From: a virus
Reading direction: 5' to 3' (one strand)
Length of the DNA stretch: 26,166 bases
IMG/VR virus record: IMGVR_UViG_3300044638_000214
Location: 1-26,166 of that record
Shown: piece by piece, positions 4,743-26,166 of the stretch
How positions within the stretch are numbered: the stretch's first letter is position 1
Layout: each line of letters begins with the position of its first letter
Translations under genes and position numbers: made by a program
The notes under the pieces: model-generated
Seen by the model: the letters and a program-made list of their open reading frames with translations, nothing else
What the model was told of the DNA's origin: nothing
Database searches by the model: none

Positions 4743-5326
4743 TGGCAACTAAAGCATATATACAAAATAGATGGAAATATAATAGACCTCAAGCAATTGC
4801 ATTTGCAAATGATTATGGAATATTAGACGATGGGCTACTTGTTCCAAATGGTGATGAGTTTGAAGATTTTATAATTTTATCAGATGACAATAGAGGAGAA
4901 ATTGGTGTAACTCCAACAAGAATTGAAAATAGAAGAAGAATGATTAATGGAACCATGCGTTCATATCATATTGCAGATAAAAATACTTATTCGGTTAGTT
5001 GGGACATGCTACCATCTAGGTCACACAGTGGTGATCCAGACTACAGCGACCTTGGAATTGCTAACTCTGCTTTAACCAAGTATACTTCTGATGGTGGTGC
5101 GGGGGGTGTAGAAATATTAAAATGGTATGAAGATCATCCAGGACCATTTTATATGTTTTTAGCATATGATAGATATGACAAATTTACCTCTAGTCAATAT
5201 GACAATCTTAAAAAGTATAATGATGTAGTTCATGTATACTTTTCTTCATTTGATTTTAATGTAGTAAAAAGAGGCGGAACTAATTTTGATTTTTGGAATA
5301 TAAACTTTTCTCTTGAGGAAGTATAA
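4742..5326 (+). CDS. Distal tail-like / minor tail protein
   Basis: A 194-residue protein rich in aromatic residues and Asp, with no signal peptide or membrane segment. Its start overlaps the tape measure stop by one base and its own stop overlaps the next ATG the same way, so it is translationally coupled inside the tail operon. In siphovirus genomes the gene straight after the tape measure is usually the distal tail protein (Dit), which links tube and baseplate; the size (about 200 residues) and beta-rich look fit. I recognise no diagnostic motif, so the specific Dit call rests on position, whereas a tail structural role is fairly safe. Confidence 0.75.
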   Translation: MATKAYIQNRWKYNRPQAIAFANDYGILDDGLLVPNGDEFEDFIILSDDNRGEIGVTPTRIENRRRMINGTMRSYHIADKNTYSVSWDMLPSRSHSGDPDYSDLGIANSALTKYTSDGGAGGVEILKWYEDHPGPFYMFLAYDRYDKFTSSQYDNLKKYNDVVHVYFSSFDFNVVKRGGTNFDFWNINFSLEEV

Positions 5327-13436: not shown

Positions 13437-13783
13437 TGTCAAAGCCTAGAAAAGAATTAAAAAATATTTTATCAGAAAAGCCAACATGGGATATAGATGA
13501 GATATTTAAACTATTTGACAAAAGACTAAAAGAAAAAAGCATCTACGATCAAAAGTATAATAAGGGTAAGGCAAAGTTTTTTGTCAAAGAGTTGTATGAG
13601 TCATACGGAGTAGAAGAGTCTAAAGAACTTGTTGAATATTATTTCAAAATATATGACTCCCCAAATTGGGAACATTTTGTAAGACGTTCTGATTCATTTT
13701 ATAAGGCTATGCAAATAAAAAAAGAAGATGATAGAATAAGAGAATTGCTTAGAAAACAAGCAAGGGATTGGTTAGGGAAATAG
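13436..13783 (+). CDS. Small basic helical protein upstream of helicase; possible helicase loader
   Basis: 115 residues beginning at GTG in a TAGTG overlap with the preceding stop. It is rich in Lys, Glu and aromatic residues and appears all helical (DEIFKLFDKRLKEKSIYDQK, ELVEYYFKIYDSPNWEHF). It ends in another TAGTG overlap with the DnaB-like gene, so the two are probably made in fixed ratio. A helicase-loader or helicase-cofactor role is plausible from this position alone. No ATPase motif is present, so it is not a DnaC-type AAA+ loader. No family recognised. Confidence 0.6.
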   Translation: MSKPRKELKNILSEKPTWDIDEIFKLFDKRLKEKSIYDQKYNKGKAKFFVKELYESYGVEESKELVEYYFKIYDSPNWEHFVRRSDSFYKAMQIKKEDDRIRELLRKQARDWLGK

Positions 13784-15009
13784 TGTCTGCAGAATTAGAA
13801 GCCAAGGTGCTTGCTGCCGTATTAAAAGATAAACAGATCCATGTTTTATTACAGGCTAACCCAGATCAATTATTCAGAACACACAGAGATGTTTGGAATT
13901 TCATAAGAGACTACTCTGAGCAAAATTCAGTTGTCCCCACAATTAGTTTGGTAACTGAAAAATTTAAAGACTTGACCCCAGTTGGTGAAGTTGGCAATAC
14001 AAAATATCATCTTGAAGAATTAAGAACTTCATATCTGCAGGATAGTTTAAGTAATGTTTTAATGTCAAGTGCCAATCAGTTGCAAAATAATCAGCCAACT
14101 GAAGCATTAAATACTTTGATATCAAAAACATCTGAATTAAAAAAGATAACTGCAAATATTAGAGACATTGATGCAACAGATATTGAAGATGCATTAGCAC
14201 ATTTTAAACACATTAAGGAGTTAAATGCAAAAGGTAATTATGGTATTAAGACAGGTCTTGCGGGGTTTGATAACTATCTTCCAGCAGGTATTACTCCTGG
14301 TCAGTTTGGCATTCTTCTTGCTTATCCTGCTATTGGTAAGTCTTGGCTTGCACTTTTTATGGCTGCTCAAGCATGGAAGAACGGAAGAAAGCCGTTAGTC
14401 ATATCTCTTGAAATGACTGAAACTGAAGTTAGAAATCGTATCTATACTATTATTGGCCAAGGATTCTTTTCACATAGAAAATTAAGTTCTGGAGAAATAG
14501 ATGAAGAGTCTTTTAATGTTTGGGGACATCAGCACTTAGACAACATGCCACCTCTACACATTGTGTCAAACGATGGGGTAGGAGAATTATCTACTTCCGT
14601 ATTAAGAGGAAAGATAGATCAGTATGCACCAGACATTGTTTTTGTAGACTATATTCAATTAATGCAATCAAATGTTCCAACTGAAAACGAAGTTGTAAAA
14701 ATAAAAAGTATTTCAAGAGAATTAAAAGTTTTGGCAATATCAGAGCAGGTTCCTATAGTAGCCATTGCTTCAGCAACGCCAGACGATGCTACCGACATGA
14801 ATAGTGTTCCAACATTGGGTCAGGTTGCATGGTCTAAGCAACTAGCCTATGATGCCGACTGGGTACTAGCACTTGGTCGTGCACAAGGATCAACAATTCT
14901 AGAGTGTGCATTTAGAAAAAATAGACATGGTTTTTGTGGAGACTTTATGATAGATGTTGATTTTGATTCTGGTAGATTTTTGTATAAAGATTTTGAGGGT
15001 AAATCATAA
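13783..15009 (+). CDS. dnaB: Replicative DNA helicase, DnaB type
   Basis: 408 residues from the GTG at 13783 in a TAGTG overlap; AGGGA lies five bases before. A TTG five codons upstream is possible but lies inside the previous gene and fits coupling less well. Residues 1-125 form the helical N-terminal domain; the RecA-like ATPase domain follows with Walker A AYPAIGKS (180-187), the SLEMT motif (208-212), Walker B IVFVDYIQ (D289), and the late SKQLAYDADWVLALGR and FRKNRHG segments, the latter carrying the arginine finger. It unwinds DNA ahead of the phage polymerase as a ring hexamer. Odd points: Ala replaces the usual first Gly of Walker A, and ASATPDD stands where DnaB normally has a SQL(N/S)R motif. 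Confidence 0.9.
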   Translation: MSAELEAKVLAAVLKDKQIHVLLQANPDQLFRTHRDVWNFIRDYSEQNSVVPTISLVTEKFKDLTPVGEVGNTKYHLEELRTSYLQDSLSNVLMSSANQLQNNQPTEALNTLISKTSELKKITANIRDIDATDIEDALAHFKHIKELNAKGNYGIKTGLAGFDNYLPAGITPGQFGILLAYPAIGKSWLALFMAAQAWKNGRKPLVISLEMTETEVRNRIYTIIGQGFFSHRKLSSGEIDEESFNVWGHQHLDNMPPLHIVSNDGVGELSTSVLRGKIDQYAPDIVFVDYIQLMQSNVPTENEVVKIKSISRELKVLAISEQVPIVAIASATPDDATDMNSVPTLGQVAWSKQLAYDADWVLALGRAQGSTILECAFRKNRHGFCGDFMIDVDFDSGRFLYKDFEGKS

Positions 15010-15029: not shown

Positions 15030-15341
15030 ATGTATAGCCACAAGCCTATTAAAAGGTTTGGTCTAGAAGGCGAAATCTACGATGATTCACATATCGTAAG
15101 ACTTAAAGACCAATATGTATTTATGGTTGTGTCCGTGATGAGAAATCATGGATACGTTCCAAGGTACGATATTGACCCAGACTTTACAGTTGGGTATAAT
15201 GGTAAGACGTTTGAATTTCAGTTATCAGTATATGGAGTGTATGTTGGAAAAGAGAGAGCAAAATGTATACTAGGGATAGACAAAAACAAAATAATACAAT
15301 CACATACTACTCAGAAGACCAAGTCAAGCGAAGTCTCTTAG
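15030..15341 (+). CDS. Small phage protein, function unknown
   Basis: 103 residues, beta-rich in the middle (HIVRLKDQYVFMVVSVMRNHGYVPRYDIDPDFTVGY) with a basic C-terminus. No motif recognised. It starts only six bases after a TATAAT with no ribosome site, so it is probably translated from a leaderless transcript. Its last 79 bases overlap the primase gene in another frame, and a good promoter for the primase (15172-15200) is embedded in it. It sits between helicase and primase, so a replication-accessory role is possible, on position only. Confidence 0.6.
   Translation: MYSHKPIKRFGLEGEIYDDSHIVRLKDQYVFMVVSVMRNHGYVPRYDIDPDFTVGYNGKTFEFQLSVYGVYVGKERAKCILGIDKNKIIQSHTTQKTKSSEVS
15172..15200 (+). 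promoter_or_regulatory. Sigma70-type promoter inside the upstream gene, facing the primase
   Basis: TTGACC (15172-15177), a 17-base spacer and a perfect TATAAT (15195-15200). Transcription would begin near 15207, about 55 bases before the primase ATG at 15263. The site lies wholly within the preceding coding region. Confidence 0.55.
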
Positions 15342-16219
15342 CATCTGGCGTAGAAATTCAATATGAGTTAGACAATGATGTAATGATTTTTTGTCCATTT
15401 CACAATAACTACAGATCTCCCGCAGGCGAGGTATCAAAAGAAACAGGATTATTCTGGTGTTTCTCGTGTCAAGAATCTAAGACTTTAGAAGAAGTAATAA
15501 TGCAAATATCTAAGAAGTCATACTTTGAAGCAATAAGAGTTATAGATTCTAATAAAGATGATAGAAACTTGTTAGAAAGATTATCTAGCACATTAGAAAA
15601 GAAAAATGAATTAAAACAATTTGACGAAGAGTTAATAGAAAAATTGTATAAAAATGTATTTGTAAACCCTAGAGCCATAAAGTATTTTGAAGATAGGGGC
15701 ATAACCAAAGATAGTGTAGACAAATATAAACTAGGATATTCAACAACACAAGACATGGTTATAGTTCCAGTTCACTCCCCAGATGGATACTACTTAGGAT
15801 TTGTTGGTAGATCAATAGAAGGAAAAAGATTTAAAAACTCTACTGACTTGCCCAAGAGCAAAACTTTGTTTAATCTTTGGCGTAATAAAAGAGTAGATAA
15901 GATATTTGTAGTAGAGTCATCTTTTGATGCAATTATGATAGAGCAAGCAGGTGGTCATGCTGTTGCCACCCTAGGAGCAACCATATCAAAAGAACAAAGA
16001 AAACTTTTAAAGCAATATTTTAATCAGGTAATTGCTTTAGGAGATAACGATGAGGCTGGTAAGAATATGTCAAATAAACTAATGACAGATCTTGGACCAG
16101 GGAAGTGCATTATTGCAAATCTACCAACAATGGTTAAGGACGTTTCAGATCTTTCAAAGCAGGATTTGAAAAACTTTGTAAATGGATTTGACAATTTAGT
16201 AGTCACAATGCTACAATAG
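15263..16219 (+). CDS. dnaG: DNA primase, DnaG type (zinc-binding plus TOPRIM)
   Basis: 318 residues, about half the length of bacterial DnaG. The N-terminal zinc domain has C44, H47, C66 and C69 (FCPFH ... FWCFSC), the CHC2 pattern. The catalytic TOPRIM part has E218 (FVVESSFDAI) and the D261/D263 pair (ALGDNDEAGKNM). The C-terminal helicase-binding domain of cellular DnaG is missing or very short. It makes RNA primers for the phage polymerase. The ATG at 15263 overlaps the previous gene by 79 bases; the ribosome site is weak (GAGAGAG), but the ten or so residues before the conserved SEDQVKRSLLASGVEIQYEL could be dispensable. It is preceded by a good internal promoter. Confidence 0.88.
   Translation: MYTRDRQKQNNTITYYSEDQVKRSLLASGVEIQYELDNDVMIFCPFHNNYRSPAGEVSKETGLFWCFSCQESKTLEEVIMQISKKSYFEAIRVIDSNKDDRNLLERLSSTLEKKNELKQFDEELIEKLYKNVFVNPRAIKYFEDRGITKDSVDKYKLGYSTTQDMVIVPVHSPDGYYLGFVGRSIEGKRFKNSTDLPKSKTLFNLWRNKRVDKIFVVESSFDAIMIEQAGGHAVATLGATISKEQRKLLKQYFNQVIALGDNDEAGKNMSNKLMTDLGPGKCIIANLPTMVKDVSDLSKQDLKNFVNGFDNLVVTMLQ
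16188..16217 (+). promoter_or_regulatory. Strong sigma70-type promoter for the SSB gene
   Basis: A perfect TTGACA (16188-16193), an 18-base spacer ending in TGC, and TACAAT (16212-16217), an extended -10. It overlaps the end of the primase gene and would start transcription near 16224, giving a leader of about 36 bases to the SSB gene. A small GCTC/GAGC hairpin (16225-16239) lies in that leader. Confidence 0.65.
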
Positions 16220-16259: not shown

Positions 16260-16910
16260 ATGTCAGTAATTAAAGGATTAAAAAACATAGAGGCAGTACT
16301 AGATAAGGCAAAGATAGAAAACAGTGGTGCAAAAGTCAACTGGCTTAAACTGGATGACGGAGAAAGTGTACAAATTAGATTCGTAAGTGAATTAGATGCA
16401 GACTCACCAAATTATGAAGAAAAGCGTGGAGTTGCAATTGTAATTAGTGAACACACAAACCCAGAAGATTATAAAAGAAAAGCAGCCTGCACAGCAGATA
16501 GTCAGGGCAGATGTTTTGGTTGTGAAATGTTTCGCAAAGAACCAAAGAGTGGATGGAGAGCACGTTTACGCTTCTATTGCAACGTATTAGTTGACAATGG
16601 AACCGAACAGCCAAAGGTTGCTGTATGGAGCATGGGAGTAAGTAAGACTGCTACATTTAGTACAATCCGTGAATTTGCAGCAGACTCTCAAAGTATCAGT
16701 AATATGGTCTGGAAATTAAAACGTAATGGTAAAGGCACAGAAACAAACTATGTCTTACTTCCAGGAAAACAAGATTCAGAAACATTTGATTGGGGATCAA
16801 ACGAGGCCTTTAACTTAGAAAAGGTTGTTCGTGATCTTCCTTATGCTGAACAAGAATCATTCTATTTAGGATTCAGCAATCCAACCACAACTGCAGCAGC
16901 AGAGTGGTAA
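16260..16910 (+). CDS. gp32-like single-stranded DNA-binding protein
   Basis: 216 residues. H65, C77, C85 and C88 (SEHTN ... ACTADSQGRCFGCEM) form an H-x11-C-x7-C-x2-C set very like the zinc site of T4 gp32 (H64, C77, C87, C90), and the flanking strands (VQIRFVSE, ARLRFYCNVLVDNG, PKVAVWSMG) suit an OB-fold. The C-terminus (PTTTAAAEW) lacks the acidic tail typical of both bacterial SSB and gp32, which normally recruits partners. It lies between primase and polymerase, has its own strong promoter and ribosome site, and would coat single strands during replication and recombination. The DNA-binding role is inferred from the zinc pattern and position; a fold match has not been tested. Confidence 0.72.
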   Translation: MSVIKGLKNIEAVLDKAKIENSGAKVNWLKLDDGESVQIRFVSELDADSPNYEEKRGVAIVISEHTNPEDYKRKAACTADSQGRCFGCEMFRKEPKSGWRARLRFYCNVLVDNGTEQPKVAVWSMGVSKTATFSTIREFAADSQSISNMVWKLKRNGKGTETNYVLLPGKQDSETFDWGSNEAFNLEKVVRDLPYAEQESFYLGFSNPTTTAAAEW

Positions 16911-16937: not shown

Positions 16938-19900
16938 TTGAATTACGTTCCATTACACGTTCATACACACTATTCTTTAATGGATGGTGTTGCAACTCCA
17001 GAAGAGTATTGCAAACGTGCAAAACAAAACGGTATGACTGCCATAGCCATTACTGATCATGGTGCACTATCTGGACATCGTCCAATGTATCGTGCAGCAA
17101 AAGCCGAGGGTATAAAGCCAATTCTTGGTATAGAAGGATATATTACTCATGATAGATTTGATAGAAGAGATAAGTCAGAAAGAAATGGACCATTAGATTT
17201 AACATATAACCATATTGTTATTCTTGCTAAAAACCAACAAGGATTAGAAAACTTAAATAGACTAAATGAAATAGCATGGACAGAAGGATTTTATAAAAAG
17301 CCTAGAATTGATTTTGAAGTATTAGAAAAGTATAAAGATGGTTTGATTGTTTTATCAGCATGTATGTCGGGATTGATTGCCAAAGCCTTGGAGTTCAAGG
17401 AGTATGCAGAAGCAAAAAGACTATTAACTTGGTTTAAAAATACATTTGGTGATGATTTTTATGTAGAGGTTATGCCTCATAATTCTAAAGAACTTAATAA
17501 AGAACTTTTGGAATTTGCAGACTCATTAGACATAAAGTCTGTTGTTACACCAGATTGTCATCACTCTACAGTCGATCAAAAGGTAGTTCAAGAAATAATG
17601 TTGTTGCTTAATACCCATGCAAAACTACAAAAGGATTCTTCATATGACAAGTCTGAAAAGATAGAGGACGTCATGAAACGTCTTGATTATTTGTATGGTG
17701 CAGATAGATCAATGTCTTTTAGATCTTTTGATATTCATTTGCTTTCATATGAAGAGATGAAACAGGCTATGAATATGCAGGGTATACAAAGAGAAGATAT
17801 TTATACTAACTCATTAGAGATAGCAGATAAAGTAGAAGATTATGATATTAAATCTGGATTAGACTTACTTCCTACCAAGGTTGACGACCCACAAAAAACA
17901 TTAGAAGATTTAGTTATTAAAGGATTAATAGATAAAAAACTAAATCATTTACCTGAATACGTTAATAGGTCATTGGAAGAATTAGAGATTATTAAACAAA
18001 AGAATTTTGCACCATATTTTTTGATTGTAAGCAATATGCTCAATTGGGCAAAAGAACAAGGAATCCTAGTTGGTCCAGGACGTGGATCAGCAGCAGGATC
18101 GTTAGTTTGCTACGCACTAGGCATTACAGATGTTGATCCAATTAAATATGGATTGTTGTTTTTTAGATTCGTAAACCCAGAACGTAATGACTTTCCAGAC
18201 ATCGACTCTGACATTGCAGATAATAGACGTGATGAACTAAAGGGATATCTTGAAGATGAATACAAAAATGTTGCATCTATTGCCACATTCTTAGAATTTA
18301 GAGGCAAGGGAATTGTCAGAGATGTTTCTAGGGCATTTAACATTCCTTTATCTGATGTTAATAAAGTTTTAAAAACAGTTGATGATTGGGATGATTTTTC
18401 AACTAGCAAGTCAGCACAATGGTTTAGATTAAAGTATCCAGAAGTAGTTAAGTACGGAGAGCAACTACGTGGAAGAATTCGTGGAACAGGGATCCATGCA
18501 GCAGGAGTTGTTACAGCAAAAGATTTTATTTTTAAATATGCTCCAATGGAAACTAGATTAGCACCAGGAACAAAGGATAGAATACCAGTAGTTGCAGTTG
18601 ACATGAATGAAGCCGCAGACATTGGACTTATCAAACTAGACGTACTTGGATTAAAAACTTTAACTGTAATTGACGAAACAATTAGAACTATAAAAGAAAG
18701 ACATAAGATTAATATAGTTTTAAATGACATACCTTTAGATGATAAACATGTTTACGAAATGCTTTCAGATGGAAAAACAAAAGGAGTATTTCAATGTGAA
18801 GCAACCCCCTATACCAACTTACTTGTTAAAATGGGGGTATCTAATTTAGATGAATTGGCTGCTTCGAATGCTTTAGTTAGACCAGGTGCTATGAATACAA
18901 TTGGAAAGACATATCTATCTAGAAAACATGGTAAGGCTATGATTGAATATATTCATCCAATTATGCAAGAATTTACAAAAGATACTTATGGATGTATTTT
19001 GTATCAGGAGCAAGTAATGCAAGCCTGCGTTCACCTTGGTGGAATGAGCATGTCAGAATCAGATAAGGTTAGAAAGATTATTGGTAAAAAGAAAGACGCA
19101 AAAGAATTTGATCAGTTTAAAGACAGATTTATTGTAGGTGCTCAAAAGCATATTACACCTTTTGCTGCAGAAGGATTGTGGCAAGATTTTGAAGCACACG
19201 CAGGGTACTCATTTAACAAGTCTCATGCTGTTGCATACTCAATGCTTTCATACTGGACGGCATGGTTAAAATATTACTATCCTATTGAATTTATGTATTG
19301 CTTATTAAAGAACGAACAAGACAAAGATGCAAGAACAGAATATCTAATTGAAGCAAAACGTATGGGAATTTCTGTTAAACTTCCACACGTTAATGAATCT
19401 GACTCAGACTTTTCAATTGAAGGCAAGGGTATACGTGTAGGACTATCTTCAATTAAATGGATATCAGACGGAGTATCTTCAAAAATTATGGCATATAGGC
19501 CGTACAAGTCTTATGCAGAGTTCTCAGCATTAGCCTCTAAAAAGGGCAGTGGGATCAATATTAGAGCCGTTCAAGCACTTGATGCAGTTGGAGCACTAGC
19601 ATTTCCAGACAACCCTAGAAAAGAAACTGTAGTTAAAGAAAACCTTTATGAATATTTAAATCTTCCAGAGTTTACTACAAGCGTTCCTCCACATTATTAT
19701 GCATACATTGATAACATAGAAGACTACGATGAGCAAGGTGCTTTTATTCTAATGGGTGTTGTAAAAAATATTAAGCGTGGAAAAGGATGGTCACGTGTTG
19801 AAATCATGGATGCAACAGGAATGGTCGGGGCATTTGATGATGAAGAAACTAGAATAGAGCAAGGTAAGACATATATATTCTTAATTGGATCAAACAGAAT

Positions 19901-20213
19901 TATGGAAGCAATAATTATAGATGAAATTAAAAACTTTACTACAAATAGTTTAATTAAATTTTTAAATTATAAATCGTTGCCGTATGGCGGAGAAGAGCAT
20001 TATGTGCTATCATTTAAGCCAAGAGTAACTAAGGCTGGAAAAAAGATGGCAAGCATGGTTGTTGTAGATAGCAATAGAGACATGAAGCCAGTAATAGTTT
20101 TCCCTAGACAATTTTCTGAGGGATACATGAAGTGCGAACCAGGGTCTGCCGTTAAGATAACATTTGGCAAGTCAGAAGATGGTTCTTTAATATTAAATGG
20201 GGTAAATAAATAA
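16938..20213 (+). CDS. dnaE: Replicative DNA polymerase, DnaE (PolIII alpha) type
   Basis: 1091 residues from a TTG start; AAAGG lies seven bases before it, and the only nearby ATG (16933) is out of frame and stops at once. Order: PHP domain (1-250), with H7, H9, D40, H41, E66, H92, C142, E177, H181, D206 and H208 in place; palm with GPGRGSAAGSLV, PDIDSD (D421, D423) and LIKLDVLGLKTL (D568); fingers with CILYQEQVMQ and GYSFNKSHAVAYS; then an OB-fold (about 930-1000). It is a family C polymerase that copies the phage genome. The intact PHP site suggests intrinsic 3'-5' proofreading, as in DnaE1 of mycobacteria. No clamp, clamp loader or epsilon gene is in the window, so host subunits or other phage genes may serve. 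The stop overlaps recA (TAATG). Confidence 0.93.
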   Translation: MNYVPLHVHTHYSLMDGVATPEEYCKRAKQNGMTAIAITDHGALSGHRPMYRAAKAEGIKPILGIEGYITHDRFDRRDKSERNGPLDLTYNHIVILAKNQQGLENLNRLNEIAWTEGFYKKPRIDFEVLEKYKDGLIVLSACMSGLIAKALEFKEYAEAKRLLTWFKNTFGDDFYVEVMPHNSKELNKELLEFADSLDIKSVVTPDCHHSTVDQKVVQEIMLLLNTHAKLQKDSSYDKSEKIEDVMKRLDYLYGADRSMSFRSFDIHLLSYEEMKQAMNMQGIQREDIYTNSLEIADKVEDYDIKSGLDLLPTKVDDPQKTLEDLVIKGLIDKKLNHLPEYVNRSLEELEIIKQKNFAPYFLIVSNMLNWAKEQGILVGPGRGSAAGSLVCYALGITDVDPIKYGLLFFRFVNPERNDFPDIDSDIADNRRDELKGYLEDEYKNVASIATFLEFRGKGIVRDVSRAFNIPLSDVNKVLKTVDDWDDFSTSKSAQWFRLKYPEVVKYGEQLRGRIRGTGIHAAGVVTAKDFIFKYAPMETRLAPGTKDRIPVVAVDMNEAADIGLIKLDVLGLKTLTVIDETIRTIKERHKINIVLNDIPLDDKHVYEMLSDGKTKGVFQCEATPYTNLLVKMGVSNLDELAASNALVRPGAMNTIGKTYLSRKHGKAMIEYIHPIMQEFTKDTYGCILYQEQVMQACVHLGGMSMSESDKVRKIIGKKKDAKEFDQFKDRFIVGAQKHITPFAAEGLWQDFEAHAGYSFNKSHAVAYSMLSYWTAWLKYYYPIEFMYCLLKNEQDKDARTEYLIEAKRMGISVKLPHVNESDSDFSIEGKGIRVGLSSIKWISDGVSSKIMAYRPYKSYAEFSALASKKGSGINIRAVQALDAVGALAFPDNPRKETVVKENLYEYLNLPEFTTSVPPHYYAYIDNIEDYDEQGAFILMGVVKNIKRGKGWSRVEIMDATGMVGAFDDEETRIEQGKTYIFLIGSNRIMEAIIIDEIKNFTTNSLIKFLNYKSLPYGGEEHYVLSFKPRVTKAGKKMASMVVVDSNRDMKPVIVFPRQFSEGYMKCEPGSAVKITFGKSEDGSLILNGVNK

Positions 20214-21220
20214 TGTCAATACAGATAGAAGAATTTTTATCACAACTAGATCCTAGTTTAAGAAAAAGATTAAGTAACGCAACAGATGTAGAATTACACA
20301 AGCAAAAAACACCAAGCATTAGTCTTAACAATGCACTCAAAGGTGGTTTTGCATACGGAAGACAAGTTTTAGTATGGGGCAATAAGTCTGCTGGTAAATC
20401 ATCATTCTGTTTACAGATGATTGGTGAAGCACAAAAAGAAGGCAAGTTATGTGCATGGATAGATGCAGAACAATCCTTTGATCCTGAGTGGGCTAAAAAA
20501 CTTGGGGTAGACACAGATAAACTAGTATACTCTGCTGCTAAGACTATTAATGATATGGTAGATGTTGCTACTCAATTAATGAAAGCAAAGATAGATATTA
20601 TAGTAGTAGATTCTATATCTGCATTACTACCCGCTATTTATTTTGAAAAAGACTCTAATGAACTAAAGGCTTTAGAAAACACAAAGCAAATTGGTGCAGA
20701 AGCCAAAGATATGACTAATGCTGTTAAGATGTTGAATTATGCCAATAATCAAGATGGTCAAACATTGCTGGTATTGATATCACAATTAAGAAATAATATT
20801 GGTGCCATGTATGCATCTCACATGCCAACAGGTGGATTGGCAGTCAAGTTTTTCTCAAGTACAGTAGTTAAGTTGTGGTCAAGTGATTCAGATAACAATG
20901 CTCTTAAATCAAAAATCACAGTAGGAGATAAACTTATAGAAGGAAAAATAGGAAGAAAAGTAAATTGGCATATTGACTTTAATAAGACTGGGCCAGGGTT
21001 CCTTGCTGGAGAATATGATTTTTATTTTGATGGAGATACCATTGGAGTAGATAAGGTAGCAGATCTTGTAGACACTGCAGAACTATTAGGTACCATCGAA
21101 AAGGGTGGGGCTTGGTATACAGTTCTTGGTGAAAGATTGCAGGGTAGAGCAAAAGTAATTGAATACCTAAAAGATAATCCAGAGAAACTAAAAGAACTTG
21201 AATCAACAATTAACACCTAA
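20213..21220 (+). CDS. recA: RecA recombinase
   Basis: 335 residues, close to cellular RecA in length. Walker A GNKSAGKS (56-63), the catalytic-Glu segment WIDAEQSFDPEWAKKLGVD, Walker B IDIIVVDSISAL, and the L2 region SQLRNNIGAMYASHMPTGGL followed by AVKFFSS align point by point with bacterial RecA. It forms filaments on single-stranded DNA and catalyses strand exchange; in phage it drives recombination-dependent replication and repair. The N-terminal oligomerisation helix is divergent and the C-terminus lacks the long acidic tail of E. coli RecA. It starts in a TAATG overlap with the polymerase gene and heads a group of recombination nucleases. Confidence 0.93.
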   Translation: MSIQIEEFLSQLDPSLRKRLSNATDVELHKQKTPSISLNNALKGGFAYGRQVLVWGNKSAGKSSFCLQMIGEAQKEGKLCAWIDAEQSFDPEWAKKLGVDTDKLVYSAAKTINDMVDVATQLMKAKIDIIVVDSISALLPAIYFEKDSNELKALENTKQIGAEAKDMTNAVKMLNYANNQDGQTLLVLISQLRNNIGAMYASHMPTGGLAVKFFSSTVVKLWSSDSDNNALKSKITVGDKLIEGKIGRKVNWHIDFNKTGPGFLAGEYDFYFDGDTIGVDKVADLVDTAELLGTIEKGGAWYTVLGERLQGRAKVIEYLKDNPEKLKELESTINT

Positions 21221-21368
21221 CTATACTGTATACCCTGGCAAATTTGTTTGTCACACGTGTAAAGACATAGTGCCAAAAGCAAGAATGTATGTAGAAAAAG
21301 GAGATCTTACTTGGATGTGTACTAAAAAGCATATATCTAAAGTAACTTTTCCACAGAAGGGATACTGA
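21198..21368 (+). CDS. Short zinc-ribbon protein with TTG start
   Basis: A 56-residue frame between recA and the next gene. It opens at TTG 21198, overlapping the recA end by 23 bases, and closes at a TGA that overlaps the next ATG (TGATG). The frame is closed by a stop at 21189, so TTG is the only usual start. It reads NYTVYPGKFVCHTC near the N-terminus and LTWMCTKKHISKV near the C-terminus; C18, C21, C41 and H45 make a CCCH zinc site. Without this gene the 150 bases between recA and 21368 would be empty in a genome that otherwise leaves no gaps. Function unknown; a nucleic-acid-binding or recombination-accessory role is guessed from its neighbours. Confidence 0.7.
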   Translation: MNQQLTPNYTVYPGKFVCHTCKDIVPKARMYVEKGDLTWMCTKKHISKVTFPQKGY

Positions 21369-21658
21369 TGAGCGAACGTGGAGAACTAAAGCGTATTGGT
21401 GCAAAACAACATCGCAATTCAGGCAGAGGACCAGTCAAGGCTGACGGATCATTGGATGACTTCGTGGTAGATGTCAAAGAATATTCTAAATCCTATTCCG
21501 TTAGCCAAGACTCTTGGGCTAAAATAGTGTCTGACACAATGAAGGTAGATAGAAAAAAGAATCCTGCCTTAATGATAGTTTTAGGATCTGGGCATAAAAA
21601 GGTAAGACTTGCTATAATTGAGTGGGAAGTATTTGAACAGTTAAGAGAAAAAGAGTAA
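21368..21658 (+). CDS. Probable small PD-(D/E)XK (Hjc-like) nuclease
   Basis: 96 residues. The layout RNSGRGPVKADG (residues 16-27), then DDFVVDVKEYSKSYSVS, then WAKI and PALMIVLGSG follows the phage/archaeal Hjc-type pattern: an SG-rich loop, an Asp (D26), a beta strand carrying the D-x-K pair (D35, K37), and a helix and strand after it. Such enzymes cleave branched DNA. Asp replaces the common Glu in the E-x-K pair, and D30/D31 could serve as the metal-binding acid instead. It lies in a coupled run with recA and the Cas4-like gene (TGATG before, TAATG after), which supports a recombination role. Assignment is by pattern only. Confidence 0.6.
   Translation: MSERGELKRIGAKQHRNSGRGPVKADGSLDDFVVDVKEYSKSYSVSQDSWAKIVSDTMKVDRKKNPALMIVLGSGHKKVRLAIIEWEVFEQLREKE
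21610..21618 (+). promoter_or_regulatory. Extended -10-like site (TGCTATAAT)
   Basis: TGC followed by a perfect TATAAT (21613-21618), about 40 bases before the ATG at 21658. No -35 match at the usual spacing. It sits within the nuclease gene and may be chance in AT-rich DNA. Confidence 0.3.
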
Positions 21659-21969
21659 TGGAAAACACAGTAGAATTATTGAACAAGTTGACATCTTTTA
21701 ATGAGATGTCCGAATACATGCAAGATGAAGAGTTTACAAAAACTCTTACTATTGTGGCTAAGTTAATTGCAAATCCAGATGTGCCCGCAGCAAAGGCAAC
21801 TTTATTAATAACTCAGTTACAAGCACAATCGGCAAAGTTTGCTATGCTAGCAGCATGGTATTCTCATGTTAAAAAAGATGATAGATCTAAAAAGAATATG
21901 TACTATGCAATAAGAGAAGCAACCGACAAACTTGTCGATGCCCTTAAATACAGCGTGAGGAATTTCTAA
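21658..21969 (+). CDS. Small helical protein, function unknown
   Basis: 103 residues, all-helical in appearance, with an Ala/Leu-rich central part (AAKATLLITQLQAQSAKFAM) and a basic Lys/Asp stretch (HVKKDDRSKKN). No catalytic motif. It is coupled by TAATG to both neighbours, a probable small nuclease upstream and the Cas4-like nuclease downstream. A structural or accessory role in recombination is plausible from position; a small DNA-binding or complex-bridging protein would fit. No family recognised. Confidence 0.6.
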   Translation: MENTVELLNKLTSFNEMSEYMQDEEFTKTLTIVAKLIANPDVPAAKATLLITQLQAQSAKFAMLAAWYSHVKKDDRSKKNMYYAIREATDKLVDALKYSVRNF

Positions 21970-22745
21970 TGGCTAAAACATTATTACAAAAAATAATTAA
22001 AAAGGTAGATACAGGAAGTGTAGATTTAAAAAAGATTACAGATGCAATCAATAATGGATACATATTAAATGCTTTAGATAAAGCATCTTTTCAAAAGAAA
22101 AAATCTTTTGCTCCATCTAAATTAGTGTGGAATGAAGGAACTTGTCCTAGGTATTGGTACTTAGCATTTGAAGGAAATGAAACTGAAATTAAAAATGATG
22201 GTCCAGGAATAGCAAATATGCTATCTGGAATAGATGGTCATAAAAGAATTGGGTTAGCATTACAAAAAACTGGTATTGTAAAATGGTTTGAAAACGAAGT
22301 AAGTTACAATGATCCACCGATTTTTGGATACTGTGATGGACTTTTTAGTATAGACGAACAAGATGTTTTGGTAGAAATTAAAACTACAAATGAAAGAGCG
22401 TTTGAATATAGAAAGCAAACTAACTCTGCTAGTGACAGCAATCGTATGCAGTTGTTAATCTATATGAAGATTTTAAATTATTCCATCGGTGCACTGGTTT
22501 ATGAAAACAAAAATACTCATGAGATATTAACAATTCCAGTTGTTCCAACTCAAGAAGATGTTGATGAAGTAAATAAAATGTTCGATTGGATGCGTAAAGT
22601 TAAAAAAGCATTTGACGATAAACAACTACCAGAAAGAATCTCCAGACAAGGCACCAAGATGTGTGGGGCATGTCCTGTAGAAAAGGTTTGCGACTCTAGA
22701 GAAAAGGGTGTAATCAAAATCGAAAAGAGGAAAGATTTTGAATGA
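21969..22745 (+). CDS. Cas4/RecB-like PD-(D/E)XK exonuclease with Fe-S cysteines
   Basis: 258 residues. Nuclease residues are in order: H91 (GHKRIG), D123 (GYCDG), E136-x-K138 (LVEIKTT) and Q161 followed by Y165 (QLLIYM). C59 (GTCPRYW) together with C232, C235 and C241 (CGACPVEKVC) form the one-plus-three cysteine set of Cas4 and AddB-type proteins that hold a 4Fe-4S cluster. The enzyme should degrade one strand of double-stranded DNA ends and so feed RecA. No CRISPR array or other cas gene is present, so it is a phage recombination exonuclease, not a CRISPR adaptation protein. It is coupled to the preceding gene (TAATG) and overlaps the next by four bases (ATGA). Confidence 0.85.
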   Translation: MAKTLLQKIIKKVDTGSVDLKKITDAINNGYILNALDKASFQKKKSFAPSKLVWNEGTCPRYWYLAFEGNETEIKNDGPGIANMLSGIDGHKRIGLALQKTGIVKWFENEVSYNDPPIFGYCDGLFSIDEQDVLVEIKTTNERAFEYRKQTNSASDSNRMQLLIYMKILNYSIGALVYENKNTHEILTIPVVPTQEDVDEVNKMFDWMRKVKKAFDDKQLPERISRQGTKMCGACPVEKVCDSREKGVIKIEKRKDFE

Positions 22746-23038
22746 CACTAAAACACTGTCAGTGGTGTGATAACTCTTTTGAAACAAAAAGCAAAAATCA
22801 AATTTATTGTAATCCAGAATGTAGATCTTTTGCAACAAAACAAAACATTGCTAAAAGATATAAGCAAAATAAAGCAAAAGAAAGAATTGGAAAAGATAGA
22901 AAGTGTGCTGGTGATTGTGGACAAATTCTTAGCATATATAACGAAAATGCTTTTTGTGACAACTGCCTTATTAACAACAAAAAGGTTGACAAAACCTTAA
23001 AAGAGATAAAGGAATTTTTTGATTATGAGCAAAAATAA
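22742..23038 (+). CDS. Double zinc-finger protein
   Basis: 98 residues with eight cysteines in two sets: C6, C9, C23, C27 (CQWC ... CNPEC) and C55, C59, C72, C75 (CAGDC ... CDNC), each a likely zinc site, joined by a basic helix (KQNIAKRYKQNKAKERIGKDRK). The first resembles zinc domains found in HNH-like and phage DNA-binding proteins. No nuclease motif is visible. It starts in an ATGA overlap with the Cas4-like gene and runs into the RuvC-like gene, so a role in DNA recombination or binding is suggested by context only. Confidence 0.65.
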   Translation: MTLKHCQWCDNSFETKSKNQIYCNPECRSFATKQNIAKRYKQNKAKERIGKDRKCAGDCGQILSIYNENAFCDNCLINNKKVDKTLKEIKEFFDYEQK

Positions 23039-23636
23039 ATTAAGGTACATAGGTAATCCTACAATAATACTTGCTATTGATGCATCAACTAACTCAATGG
23101 CATTTTCTCTATTCTCAGAAAGAAAGTTAATTCAATATGGAAAAGTTAATTTTCATGGTAACCATGTATATGAAAGAACTGGAGATGCTACTAAAAAAAT
23201 ATCAGCATTTCTTAAAGACTATAAGATTGATGCAATAGTTATAGAATCTGCAATATATACTAATTCTCAAAATACTGCAATTACACTTTCTCTTGTTCAA
23301 GGAGCAATATTAGGAGCAAGTCAAATGTACAACAAGGCACCAATTGTTTCATGTTCACCAGTATCATGGCAATCGTGGATTGGAAATGGAAGACTTAAAA
23401 AAGAAGAAAAGCAAGCAATTAAAGATTTATACGGAGAAGAAAAATCTTATTCGTTTTATAAAACTAAAGAAAGAGAAATGAGAAAAGCAAGAACTATAAG
23501 TAAAGTTAATATGCAGTTTGATTTAAGTGTTGATGATGATGATGTTGCTGACTCAATAGCAATAGGTTGGTACGCTTCAGAAAATTGGCATAAACTTGTT
23601 GATCAGCCACACAATCTTGACAAGGGCAAGGGGTAG
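23025..23636 (+). CDS. RuvC-fold Holliday junction resolvase-like protein
   Basis: 203 residues from the ATG at 23025, overlapping the preceding stop by 14 bases; TTG at 23019 is an alternative and has the better spacing from AAAGGA (five bases, against eleven). The RuvC/RNase H fold acids are in place: D19 in LAIDASTNSMAFS, E74 in DAIVIESAIYT, and the C-terminal acidic pair in SVDDDDVADSIAIG (D170-173, D176). Phage and bacterial RuvC-like enzymes cut four-way junctions. It closes the run of recombination genes begun by recA and precedes packaging genes, where resolved DNA is needed. A run of Lys/Arg-rich residues at about 140-160 may contact DNA. Confidence 0.85.
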   Translation: MSKNKLRYIGNPTIILAIDASTNSMAFSLFSERKLIQYGKVNFHGNHVYERTGDATKKISAFLKDYKIDAIVIESAIYTNSQNTAITLSLVQGAILGASQMYNKAPIVSCSPVSWQSWIGNGRLKKEEKQAIKDLYGEEKSYSFYKTKEREMRKARTISKVNMQFDLSVDDDDVADSIAIGWYASENWHKLVDQPHNLDKGKG

Positions 23637-23645
23637 TGATAAAAT
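23617..23645 (+). promoter_or_regulatory. Consensus sigma70-type promoter with extended -10
   Basis: A perfect TTGACA (23617-23622), a 17-base spacer ending in TGA, and TAAAAT (23640-23645). The -10 overlaps the ATG of the HTH gene (23644-23646), so the start near 23652 would lie within that gene; it would drive the packaging genes downstream or a shorter HTH product. Its layout, including TAAAATG, matches 12551-12579. Confidence 0.5.
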
Positions 23646-23793
23646 GAAGTTGTATACAAATGAGGCATGGCTTAGAAAGAGATACGTTGTGGATAAAAAA
23701 ACTCCTCAAGATATAGCAAAGGAATGCTCTACTTCGGTTGAAACAATATATGTTTACTTAGCAAAATTTAAACTAAGGAAATCTAAAAGATGA
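23644..23793 (+). CDS. Small helix-turn-helix protein
   Basis: 49 residues from the ATG at 23644. Residues about 18-45 (DKKTPQDIAKECSTSVETIY then VYLAKF) have a clear helix-turn-helix pattern with a T-P-x-D-I-A-x-x opening, and the tail is basic (KLRKSKR). It is a likely sequence-specific DNA-binding protein, perhaps a regulator of the next operon or of packaging, but the target is unknown. An in-frame TTG at 23596 would add 16 residues but lies inside the resolvase gene. A strong-looking promoter overlaps its start codon, and its TGA overlaps the next ATG (ATGA). Confidence 0.65.
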   Translation: MKLYTNEAWLRKRYVVDKKTPQDIAKECSTSVETIYVYLAKFKLRKSKR

Positions 23794-24479
23794 AATTTAA
23801 AAATAACAATATTGAATTGTGGACAACTGTAGAAGGATTGGCTGGAATAGAAGAGTGTAGGCCAAAGCCTGCTAGTAAATTTATTCCACAATGGTGGAAA
23901 GACATGCCTTATTTAAATGAGCCTAAAGTTGTAAGAAATGTAAAAGTATGCCCATCTTTTCCAGATATGTTTTCTCAAGGATTTATTATTCCAGCCTGGT
24001 GTGACATGATATTTGAAGGTGGAGAAAATCCAGGATTTACATTGCCACATGAAGATTTTAAAATGAGTTTTCATACTCATAAACAATTTTTAGATTATGT
24101 ACCAGATAACTACAGAAAGACTGTAAATGCTATTATAAAAGCACACATGCCGTGGAGAATAAAAACTCCCAAAGGATATTCGGTATATCAAATGCCATTG
24201 TTTTTTCATTACAACGAAGACTTTTCTATAATGCCTGGAATTATAGACACGGACAAGCATCATATTGCCAATCCTCAGATAGTTTTGCATACAGAAAAAA
24301 CAAAAGTTGTGGTTAAAAGAGGAGATCCATTTGTTTGGTACATACCATTTAAAAGAGAAAAATTATCTATAGAGGTAAGAGAAGAAACAGAAGAAGATAG
24401 ATACGTAGATGTAGTACATCATCTTAATATATTTTCAAAATTTACAGATGGATATAAGAAAGGAATGGGAAATGGCTGA
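23790..24479 (+). CDS. Conserved-looking 229-residue protein, function unknown
   Basis: 229 residues, rich in Pro, Trp, Phe and His. Striking segments are KPASKFIPQWWKDMPYL near residue 27, VCPSFPDMFSQGFIIPAWCD, and YQMPLFFHYNEDFSIMPGII. It seems beta-rich and globular, without a signal peptide. I have an impression of similar proteins in marine T4-like cyanophages but cannot name a family or activity. Its His/Trp/Cys content would suit a ligand- or metal-binding pocket, which is guesswork. It begins in an ATGA overlap and its end overlaps the next start by eight bases, in a run leading to the terminase. Confidence 0.65.
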   Translation: MKFKNNNIELWTTVEGLAGIEECRPKPASKFIPQWWKDMPYLNEPKVVRNVKVCPSFPDMFSQGFIIPAWCDMIFEGGENPGFTLPHEDFKMSFHTHKQFLDYVPDNYRKTVNAIIKAHMPWRIKTPKGYSVYQMPLFFHYNEDFSIMPGIIDTDKHHIANPQIVLHTEKTKVVVKRGDPFVWYIPFKREKLSIEVREETEEDRYVDVVHHLNIFSKFTDGYKKGMGNG

Positions 24480-24807
24480 CTATAAGTATCCAGATTTTGA
24501 AAAACAACTTGAAGATCGCATGAAGTTTATTCGTGATATATCAACCCAAGCACCTGCGGGTAGAAAGATATTAGATGAATGTCTTGATATAGCAGAACTA
24601 CTTATCAATAAGAATCAATCATATGGTAGTTCATATAGCCATCCTATTAATATATTTAGTAAATCTACCCCAAAAGAACAAATTTATATTCGCATTGATG
24701 ATAAACTTAATAGAATACATAAAGGTAAAGAATATGCATCAGAGGATACTATTTTAGATCTTATTGGATATCTAGTATTATTAAGGACATTAGATGAGCG
24801 ACAATGA
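24472..24807 (+). CDS. DUF1599/Nmad1-like protein
   Basis: 111 residues from the ATG at 24472, seven bases after AAGGA; an upstream in-frame ATG at 24448 lies inside the previous gene without a ribosome site. Three motifs match the nucleotide-modification-associated domain 1 (DUF1599): KNQSYGSS (47-54), RIDDKLNRI (74-82) and EDTILDLIGYLVL (91-103). That family is helical, related in style to MazG-like NTP pyrophosphatases, and is often found near nucleotide- or DNA-modification genes in phages. It may bind or hydrolyse a nucleotide; the substrate is unknown. It overlaps the small terminase gene by 14 bases. Confidence 0.65.
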   Translation: MADYKYPDFEKQLEDRMKFIRDISTQAPAGRKILDECLDIAELLINKNQSYGSSYSHPINIFSKSTPKEQIYIRIDDKLNRIHKGKEYASEDTILDLIGYLVLLRTLDERQ

Positions 24808-25315
24808 TTTAGTAAAACACCTTGACCTAGTCAACAGTGTTGCTACAGAGTATTTAAAGGGCTTAGACGCCTCAGAGATATCTAGACAGTTGGATATCCC
24901 AAGACCAAAAGTAATGACTCTCTTAAACGACTGGAGAGCGATGGCATCTAACAATCAAGCCATACATGCTCGTGCAAAAGAAGCACTTGCTGGAGCAGAT
25001 CAACACTATTCTTCTTTAATTAAAAAAGCATATGAGGTTATTGATGTTGCAGACACAAATACAAACCTTGGTGCAAAAACTCAGGCTATCAAATTGATAG
25101 CAGATATTGAAAGTAAAAGACTTGAGATGTTACAAAAAGCAGGGCTGTTAGACAACAAAGAAATAGCAGAACAAATTATTGAAATGGAAAGAAAACAAGA
25201 AGTGTTAATGAAGATATTAAAAGAAGTTGCTTCAAAACATCCAGATGTTCGTGAAGAGATTATGCGTAGACTTTCTGAAATTCAAACCGAGGTGATTGTA
25301 ATTGACAACAATTGA
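24794..25315 (+). CDS. terS: Putative terminase small subunit
   Basis: 173 residues. The N-terminus (about 15-50, EYLKGLDASEISRQLDIPRPKV) is a helix-turn-helix like those of small terminase subunits, which recognise the packaging site. The rest is a long helical, coiled-coil-like region (IESKRLEMLQKAGLLDNKEI then AEQIIEMERKQEVLMK) suited to ring assembly. It directly precedes and overlaps the large terminase gene, the usual order. The sequence has no catalytic motif, as expected. Function is inferred from domain order and position; homology was not tested. Confidence 0.75.
   Translation: MSDNDLVKHLDLVNSVATEYLKGLDASEISRQLDIPRPKVMTLLNDWRAMASNNQAIHARAKEALAGADQHYSSLIKKAYEVIDVADTNTNLGAKTQAIKLIADIESKRLEMLQKAGLLDNKEIAEQIIEMERKQEVLMKILKEVASKHPDVREEIMRRLSEIQTEVIVIDNN
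25289..25296 (+). promoter_or_regulatory. Perfect Shine-Dalgarno (GAGGTGAT) of the large terminase
   Basis: GAGGTGAT is complementary to the 3' end of bacterial 16S rRNA over eight bases. It ends five bases before a TTG at 25302, which decides the start of the terminase gene; it lies within the small terminase coding region. Confidence 0.8.
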
Positions 25316-26166
25316 TTTTAGTGAATTTATAGAAGCACTTGACGAAAGTCCATTTGAAGAAATGCCAGTAGATGTTAAAACATTTGTAAGAAGTAAAGAT
25401 TATTTAAATATGCCAGAATTATCTGAGTATCAATATACACTTGTAGAGTGCATGAGTCAGATATATAAGCAAGAAGATGTAGAAAGATGGCTAGGAAAAG
25501 AAAGTGGAAGAGAGCATTATAAAAAATATACCAAGTCTGAAGTTATTCTTATGTGTGGAAAGGGTAGTGGAAAAGATCACACCTCAACTATTGGTTGTGC
25601 TTATATTGTATACAAACTTCTTTGCCTTAAAGACCCTTCTAGATATTTTGGCAAGCCCTCAAACGATGCAATAGATTTAATTAACGTTGCGGTAAACGCA
25701 CAGCAAGCAAAGAACGTATTCTTTAAAGGTTTTAAATCTAAAATAGAGGGATCTCCATGGTTTGCTGGTAAATATTCTGATCCAAAAGTTGATAGTATTG
25801 AGTTTAACAAAGCAATTACAGTATATTCAGGACACTCCGAAAGAGAGTCAGCAGAAGGTTTAAACCTAATGTTGGCAGTACTTGATGAAATATCTGGATT
25901 TGCGATGGAAAATGCTGGAGGAAATGATCAAGGAAAAACAGCAGATAATTTATACAAAGCATTTAGAGGTTCTGTGGACTCTCGCTTTCCAGATTTTGGT
26001 AAAGTAATCCTTCTTTCTTTTCCTAGGTATAAGGGAGATTTTATATCACAAAGATATGAAGATGTGGTAGCAGAAAAAGAAACAGGAATTAGAAGTCATG
26101 AGTTTGTTATAAATCCAGCGTTATCTGAAGAAGATCCAACCAATAAGTTTACTATTGAGTGGGAAG
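25302..26166 (+). CDS. terL: Terminase large subunit, 3'-truncated by window edge
   Basis: Visible part 288 residues from a TTG at 25302, overlapping the small subunit gene by 14 bases; the frame is closed by a stop at 25299, and a perfect ribosome site fixes the start (the first ATG, 25362, has none). The ATPase domain shows Walker A CGKGSGKD (residues 85-92) and Walker B LMLAVLDEISG with D/E at about 194-195, followed by the SFP motif region (ILLSFPRYKGDFI) that couples hydrolysis to movement. The C-terminal nuclease domain lies beyond the window. It is the motor that packs DNA into proheads. It ends the + strand run and, with the tail genes at the other end, suggests that the map is circularly permuted or that heads and portals lie outside. 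Confidence 0.92.
   Translation, partial: MTTIDFSEFIEALDESPFEEMPVDVKTFVRSKDYLNMPELSEYQYTLVECMSQIYKQEDVERWLGKESGREHYKKYTKSEVILMCGKGSGKDHTSTIGCAYIVYKLLCLKDPSRYFGKPSNDAIDLINVAVNAQQAKNVFFKGFKSKIEGSPWFAGKYSDPKVDSIEFNKAITVYSGHSERESAEGLNLMLAVLDEISGFAMENAGGNDQGKTADNLYKAFRGSVDSRFPDFGKVILLSFPRYKGDFISQRYEDVVAEKETGIRSHEFVINPALSEEDPTNKFTIEWE

What the first reader, a model, noticed from the sequence alone, without database searches (positions are those of the whole stretch)
20213..23636. Seven-gene recombination cassette with three kinds of nuclease
RecA, a zinc ribbon, a probable Hjc-like nuclease, a helical unknown, a Cas4-like Fe-S nuclease, a double zinc finger and a RuvC-fold resolvase lie head to tail with 1- to 23-base overlaps. 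Two different candidate junction resolvases together with an end-resecting nuclease and RecA look like a self-contained strand-exchange system. The three unnamed genes between known enzymes are candidates for new accessory factors.
Basis: partly seen in the sequence, partly recalled or inferred. Interest (0 to 1): 0.6.

Follow-up and report, generated by a model that had tools for sequence, protein, structure and literature searches.

The report
Conserved actinophage replication-recombination gene cassette
A set of tightly packed phage genes for cutting, pairing and rejoining DNA is real and intact, but it is the standard, already annotated module of a known group of large phages of actinobacteria, in which three small unnamed proteins are also almost always present.

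Summary
The seven ORFs exist as described, with overlaps of 23, 1, 1, 1, 4 and 20 bases. Their identities hold: UvsX/RecA-like recombinase, C2CH zinc ribbon, PD-(D/E)XK Hjc-like nuclease, helical bundle, Cas4-type Fe-S nuclease, double Cys4 zinc finger and RuvC-fold resolvase. The same order occurs in cultured phages: Streptomyces Samisti12 and NootNoot, Sham with extra small genes, and Rhodococcus Weasels2 without the zinc proteins. In IMG/VR all seven stand in this order in 96 of 100 dereplicated loci showing both RecA and RuvC, so the unnamed genes do co-occur; they are under purifying selection. It is not self-contained: recA starts on the polymerase stop codon, downstream of helicase, primase and SSB, and an eighth gene (HTH, 23641-23793) is equally constant. 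New here: insertions are frequent between Hjc and the helical gene (25/108 loci) but never seen within helical-Cas4-zinc finger-RuvC. That points to the helical protein as a Cas4 partner, an inference only. Verdict: ordinary module, new member of a known kind, with named, testable unknowns.

The parts
13768..15009 (+). DnaB-like replicative helicase (context, upstream)
   Evidence: phrog_19, E 2.6e-69
15263..16219 (+). DNA primase (context)
   Evidence: phrog_47, E 4.8e-49
16260..16910 (+). single-strand DNA-binding protein (context)
   Evidence: phrog_9721, E 6.6e-45
16938..20213 (+). [quoted passage not shown] its stop codon overlaps the recA start by one base (context)
   Evidence: phrog_405; Pfam DNA_pol3_alpha, PHP, finger
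20213..21220 (+). RecA/UvsX-like recombinase, Walker A GNKSAGKSS
   Evidence: Pfam RecA 2.7e-40, RecA_C 1.2e-12, phrog_97 3.1e-60; K62, S63, D133, S134 conserved in at least 99%
21198..21368 (+). zinc ribbon, 56 aa, ligands C18 C21 C41 H45; TTG start uncertain
   Evidence: phrog_10952 (unknown function) 3.8e-6; ligands in at least 98% of 101 sequences; homologues gp180 of Samisti12, 79 of NootNoot, 62 of Sham
21368..21658 (+). Hjc-like PD-(D/E)XK nuclease, 96 aa: E6, NSGR 17-20, D26, D35-x-K37
   Evidence: phrog_2002 'Holliday junction resolvase' 4.3e-18; D26, D35, K37 invariant and E6 98% in 107 sequences; AlphaFold pLDDT 89, best PDB matches archaeal Hjc, Z 8.1
21658..21969 (+). helical-bundle protein of unknown function, 103 aa (phrog_9818)
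   Evidence: phrog_9818 5.2e-30; all 49 aligned members match it; four helices, pLDDT 88.5; K79, N80, Y82, L96, K97 invariant
21969..22745 (+). Cas4-type Fe-S PD-(D/E)XK exonuclease: C59, H91, D123, E136-x-K138, C232, C235, C241
   Evidence: phrog_1706 1.1e-34, phrog_1990 Cas4-domain 6e-11; NCBIfam cas4 1.5e-9, below its cut-off; these residues invariant in 112 sequences
22742..23038 (+). double Cys4 zinc finger, 98 aa (C6 C9 C23 C27 / C55 C59 C72 C75)
   Evidence: phrog_10853 (unknown function) 1e-11; all eight Cys in at least 99% of 112 sequences; some relatives match NinG/Rap (5 of 61) and HNH (38 of 61) PHROGs
23019..23636 (+). RuvC-fold resolvase: D21, E76, D175, D178 (numbered from TTG 23019); ATG 23025 is the alternative start
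   Evidence: phrog_159 3.5e-19; family profile hits solved RuvC 1hjr at 3.1e-6; D21, E76, D178 invariant and D175 97% in 114 sequences
23641..23793 (+). HTH DNA-binding protein, 50 aa: eighth constant gene, not in the finding
   Evidence: phrog_9759 9.6e-10 (longer ORF from 23596); 'DNA binding protein' gp172 of Samisti12 and gp110 of Weasels2; follows RuvC in 114 dereplicated loci
24448..24807 (+). MazG-like protein (context); the MazG gene lies between polymerase and recA in Samisti12, NootNoot, Sham and Weasels2
   Evidence: HMM built from annotated MazG genes plus this protein; phrog_1485 1.2e-12
24794..25315 (+). phrog_9507 protein directly before the large terminase (context)
   Evidence: phrog_9507 4.6e-49
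25302..26165 (+). large terminase, cut by the window end (context; exact start not determined)
   Evidence: terminase HMM E 8.4e-175

Best explanation
This is the recombination arm of the replication module of a large actinobacteriophage. Shown by sequence: a recombinase, two fold-distinct candidate junction or branch nucleases, a Cas4-type Fe-S nuclease, two small zinc proteins, a helical protein and an HTH protein in one tightly packed, long-conserved run directly behind PolIII alpha, SSB, primase and helicase and ahead of terminase. Inferred mechanism: the Cas4-type nuclease resects linear ends or breaks of replicating DNA; the RecA-like protein loads on the SSB-coated tails and invades homologous DNA (terminal repeats or sister genomes); strand exchange primes further replication into concatemers; the Hjc-like and RuvC-like enzymes cut the resulting junctions and branches so that terminase can package linear DNA. 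Weaker inference: the helical protein assists the Cas4-type nuclease or hands DNA over to RecA, the double zinc finger guides Cas4 or RuvC to branched DNA, and the zinc ribbon assists RecA or Hjc.
For: Families and active sites. Hjc-like fold, with archaeal Hjc/Hje filling the first seven VIA-align ranks at Z 7.3-8.1. RuvC profile matching solved RuvC. Synteny in cultured phages and in IMG/VR: 96 of 100 dereplicated loci with RecA and RuvC in view hold all seven in this order; Hjc 104/104, helical 107/107, Cas4 109/109, double zinc finger 111/112, zinc ribbon 100/102. Separate tblastn searches give near-equal record counts: Hjc 136, helical 134, Cas4 142 of which 136 are Streptomyces or Rhodococcus phages. 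Insertions: hjc|hel 25/108, but 0/110, 0/111 and 0/113 within hel-cas4-zf2-ruvc, with 14 state changes on a tree. Related cluster BE1 phages have direct terminal repeats of about 11 kb (PMC5764925), a natural substrate for this pathway.
Against: No activity, interaction or phenotype was found in the literature searched or tested here. Gene adjacency does not prove a complex, and absence of insertions can also reflect overlapping stops and starts. The module was not shown to be needed for replication or packaging. The fold match of the Hjc-like protein is moderate (Foldseek E 0.04 for Hjc, none below 0.001), and no credible PDB sequence match was found. The window's own genome ends, and so any terminal repeats, are unknown.
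Confidence: 0.72

Rival explanations
1. The cassette serves mainly DNA repair and genetic exchange, or repair of host- or defence-inflicted breaks, rather than recombination-primed replication; the two resolvases are redundant backups.
For: The same enzymes would act; RecA plus a Cas4-type nuclease is a minimal break-repair set. In other Streptomyces phages Cas4 and resolvase genes also occur apart (gene tables in PMC8782336).
Against: Fixed position between polymerase and terminase across about 100 divergent loci, and universal retention of both resolvases, fit a core role better than backup repair.
Confidence: 0.2
2. The two resolvase-like proteins do different jobs: one (probably RuvC-like) debranches DNA for packaging, while the Hjc-like protein is a structure-specific nuclease in replication or repair and not a true Holliday junction resolvase. 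This can hold together with the best explanation.
For: Both are retained in every locus where they could be scored; they lie in different halves of the cassette, separated by its most insertion-prone internal junction, with Hjc-like near recA and RuvC-like on the terminase side; Hjc resemblance is by fold and motif only.
Against: The archaeal Hjc/Hje structures are the best fold matches, and the database name for phrog_2002 is Holliday junction resolvase.
Confidence: 0.4
3. The helical, zinc-ribbon and double zinc-finger proteins are unrelated to recombination (for example inhibitors of host nucleases or defence, or regulators) and are merely carried in a stable operon.
For: No family with known function matches the helical or zinc-ribbon protein; Weasels2 lacks both zinc proteins yet keeps the enzymes.
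Against: Near-perfect co-occurrence, no insertion seen on either side of Cas4, purifying selection, and NinG/Rap and HNH matches of some double zinc-finger relatives.
Confidence: 0.25

Closest known systems
Replication-recombination module of Stanwilliamsviridae (Streptomyces phages Samisti12 NC_042012, NootNoot MF347636, Sham ON645339)
   Same: Same genes in the same order: primase, SSB, DnaE-like PolIII alpha, RecA/UvsX, zinc ribbon, HJ resolvase, helical protein, Cas4-type, double zinc finger, RuvC.
   Different: There MazG and a small ORF lie between polymerase and recA, and a gene with DprA or GTP-binding names follows RuvC. Samisti12 and NootNoot have one extra small gene between Hjc and the helical gene; Sham has extra small genes on both sides of its Hjc-like gene, which is annotated hypothetical. 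The window has none of these, and protein identity is about 28-51%.
Rhodococcus phage Weasels2 module (Weaselvirus, NC_041887)
   Same: RecA, HJ resolvase, helical protein, Cas4-type, RuvC and HTH in the same order.
   Different: Lacks the zinc ribbon and the double zinc finger; polymerase split into two ORFs.
Recombination-dependent replication of phage T4 (UvsX, gp46/47, gp49), from general knowledge
   Same: Same functional set: recombinase, end-resecting nuclease, junction-cutting enzyme feeding packaging.
   Different: Different protein families for nuclease and resolvases; no UvsY relative recognised, though none was searched for specifically.

Membership tests
Stanwilliamsviridae/Weaselvirus-type recombination cassette | RecA, Hjc-like, helical phrog_9818, Cas4-type and RuvC genes in this order behind PolIII alpha | tested here: met
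   Window, four cultured phages and 96 of 100 dereplicated loci that include the two zinc genes as well
Hjc-like PD-(D/E)XK resolvase | PD-(D/E)XK fold with E...D...(D/E)xK | tested here: met
   Model pLDDT 89; Hjc/Hje top ranks at Z 7.3-8.1; D26, D35, K37 invariant and E6 98%
Hjc-like PD-(D/E)XK resolvase | cuts four-way junctions as a dimer | not testable with these tools
   needs biochemistry
Cas4/AddB-type Fe-S nuclease | four Fe-S cysteines plus H, D, ExK active site | tested here: met
   C59, C232, C235, C241, H91, D123, E136, K138 invariant in 112 sequences
CRISPR Cas4 | NCBIfam cas4 cut-off | tested here: not met
   37.9 bits against a cut-off of 65; CRISPR genes were not looked for. 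Described as a phage Cas4-type exonuclease, not filed as a CRISPR Cas4
RuvC resolvase | sequence similarity to solved RuvC with D, E, D, D active site | tested here: met
   Profile hits 1hjr at 3.1e-6; D21, E76, D175, D178. The fold itself was not predicted here
RuvC resolvase | NCBIfam RuvC equivalog cut-off | tested here: not met
   35.3 against 163 bits: a phage RuvC-like family, not the bacterial equivalog
RecA/UvsX recombinase | RecA core with Walker A/B and C-terminal domain | tested here: met
   Pfam RecA and RecA_C above cut-off; below the bacterial RecA equivalog cut-off
NinG/Rap junction endonuclease | match of the double zinc finger to the NinG family | tested here: inconclusive
   Window protein E 0.2-0.5; 5 of 61 members below 0.01

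The most novel reading that the evidence does not exclude
The helical protein (phrog_9818) is a dedicated cofactor of the phage Cas4-type nuclease that couples end resection to RecA loading, and the double zinc finger directs Cas4 or RuvC to branched DNA, so that helical-Cas4-zinc finger-RuvC form one functional unit.
Probability: 0.3. Interest if true: 0.5.

Novelty: new member of a known kind. Interest (0 to 1): 0.27.

Why it matters
The insertion pattern predicts which proteins belong together, and cultured phages (Samisti12, NootNoot, Weasels2) offer the means to test it. Two unrelated resolvase folds kept side by side in every scored relative make a division of labour directly testable.

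Tried and rejected
Sequence profile of the Hjc-like family against the PDB: no credible hit. Helical family against the PDB by sequence: only weak, unconvincing matches, best E 0.009 to a designed helix bundle. By fold: only designed bundles and generic helical proteins, Z up to 10.5, within the range the tool calls common for bundles; in the viral structure library only phage homologues at E below 0.001. Double zinc finger against the PDB: best ZNF346 finger at 0.0016, then uS14 zinc domains, read as generic zinc fingers. Helical family in bacterial and archaeal genomes: pattern matches but no confirmed relative, so no host hint. Literature on two resolvases or a Cas4-UvsX recombination module in phages: no held paper. 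Considered and dropped: the cassette as a mobile unit, because order and position are the same throughout.
Full report
Observation. The RuvC ORF can start at ATG 23025 instead of TTG 23019, and the zinc-ribbon start codon is uncertain. The window is a 26,166-base virus record with 34% G+C. Upstream and head to tail are a DnaB-like helicase, primase, SSB and a DnaE-like PolIII alpha; downstream a 50-aa HTH protein, a phrog_7084 gene, a MazG-like gene, a phrog_9507 gene and the start of the large terminase. The polymerase stop overlaps the recA ATG by one base, so the cassette is part of a longer run.

Identities. RecA/UvsX (Pfam RecA 2.7e-40, phrog_97), Hjc-like (phrog_2002, 4.3e-18), helical (phrog_9818, unknown function), Cas4-type (phrog_1706, phrog_1990), double zinc finger (phrog_10853, unknown function), RuvC-like (phrog_159) and zinc ribbon (phrog_10952, weak, unknown function). 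Curated NCBIfam cut-offs for bacterial RecA, RuvC and CRISPR Cas4 are not reached, so these are phage families related to those enzymes. Active-site and metal-ligand residues are conserved in about 97-100% of 94-114 dereplicated sequences.

The 96-residue protein was predicted from 60 aligned sequences with pLDDT 89 and the element order alpha-beta-beta-alpha-beta-beta-alpha. In the second look by VIA-align 2 the first seven entries are archaeal Hjc/Hje structures (Z 7.3-8.1, rmsd 2.2-3.7, 76-90 residues aligned), followed by Cas4-type and alkaline exonucleases and tRNA splicing endonucleases. Foldseek alone gives E 0.02 for its top hit and 0.04 for Hjc, so the match is moderate. Together with E6, D26 and D35-x-K37 this supports a PD-(D/E)XK fold closest to Hjc; the activity is untested.

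Co-occurrence in cultured phages. Samisti12, NootNoot and Weasels2 have the Hjc-like gene annotated as a Holliday junction resolvase; in Sham the Hjc-like gene 65 is annotated as a hypothetical protein and was recognised here by alignment. RecA and RuvC are annotated in all four, and the Cas4-type gene under varying names. The helical gene is the next gene before the Cas4 gene in all four and is hypothetical in all. Separate tblastn searches of the phage collection found 136 records for Hjc, 134 for the helical protein, 142 for Cas4 (127 Streptomyces, 9 Rhodococcus, 6 Thermus) and 113 for the double zinc finger, a weaker query. [quoted passage not shown]

Co-occurrence in metagenomes. Three IMG/VR scans, anchored on the helical, RuvC and Hjc proteins, gave 80 loci each. 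With HMMs for each family and dereplication to 116 clusters, genes flanked on both sides by cassette members were present as follows: Hjc 104/104, helical 107/107, Cas4 109/109, double zinc finger 111/112, zinc ribbon 100/102. Of 100 clusters with both RecA and RuvC in view, 96 have all seven in this order; the four exceptions lack the zinc ribbon (L031), lack both zinc proteins (Weasels2, L004), have two zinc ribbons (L036) or have Hjc and zinc ribbon swapped (L079). Anchoring on three cassette members limits independence.

Sub-structure. Stop-to-stop distances show extra DNA between Hjc and the helical gene in 25 of 108 clusters, but in 0 of 110, 0 of 111 and 0 of 113 for helical-Cas4, Cas4-zinc finger and zinc finger-RuvC; recA-zinc ribbon has 1 of 100, zinc ribbon-Hjc 4 of 102 and RuvC-HTH 12 of 114. 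Fisher p is about 5e-9 for the first contrast, not corrected for relatedness. On a tree of concatenated helical, Cas4 and RuvC proteins the insertion state changes 14 times, so it is not one inherited event. Inserts include a DnaQ-like exonuclease (L131), a methyltransferase (L136) and phrog_2954 proteins labelled ferrochelatase. This suggests two blocks, RecA-zinc ribbon-Hjc and helical-Cas4-zinc finger-RuvC; it does not show that the proteins bind each other.

The unnamed proteins. The helical protein folds with confidence (pLDDT 88.5, helices 4-21, 24-38, 44-70, 76-101) but matches only generic bundles and its own phage homologues. The double zinc finger has two Cys4 sets conserved in at least 99% of sequences; some relatives match HNH (38 of 61) and NinG/Rap (5 of 61) families, but the window protein itself does so only at E 0.02-0.5. 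The zinc ribbon has C-C-C-H ligands in at least 98%. Median dN/dS values of 0.27, 0.08 and 0.14 for zinc ribbon, helical protein and double zinc finger show that they are real genes.

Mechanism and verdict. The best reading is the recombination arm of a replication module, as stated in Best explanation; enzyme identities are supported by sequence, the pathway is inferred from known families. The related BE1 phages have terminal repeats of about 11 kb (PMC5764925), but the window's own ends are unknown. The module is known and annotated in cultured relatives, so the finding is ordinary; what is added here is the measured constancy of the three unnamed genes and the insertion pattern.

Noticed in passing
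window 23790-24479: phrog_7084 gene (unknown function) sits between the HTH and MazG-like genes here, in L162 and in one near-identical contig (L006/L086/L161), but between SSB and polymerase in L056; no other searched locus has it, so it looks like a movable extra.
   Followed up: partly
L131 398-1003; L138 4651-6594; L053 5291-7217; L136 6095-6574; between hjc and hel: Insertion-prone junction: DnaQ-like 3'-5' exonuclease (phrog_403) in L131, phrog_2954 proteins labelled ferrochelatase in several loci, three in a row in L138, and a methyltransferase in L136.
   Followed up: partly
window 24448-24807: The MazG-like gene lies downstream of RuvC here but between polymerase and recA in Samisti12, NootNoot, Sham and Weasels2, i.e. 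it changes sides of the cassette.
   Followed up: partly
L002 13479-13937, L003 10070-10558, L005 11477-11938: A gene named GTP-binding domain, DprA-like DNA processing chain A or DprA-like ssDNA binding protein follows RuvC in Samisti12, Sham and NootNoot; its HMM found it in only four loci and not in the window.
   Followed up: no
window 204-4742 and 5326-9660: Two very large ORFs (1512 and 1444 aa); the second matches a minor tail protein family (phrog_10359), the first only an unknown family over short stretches.
   Followed up: no
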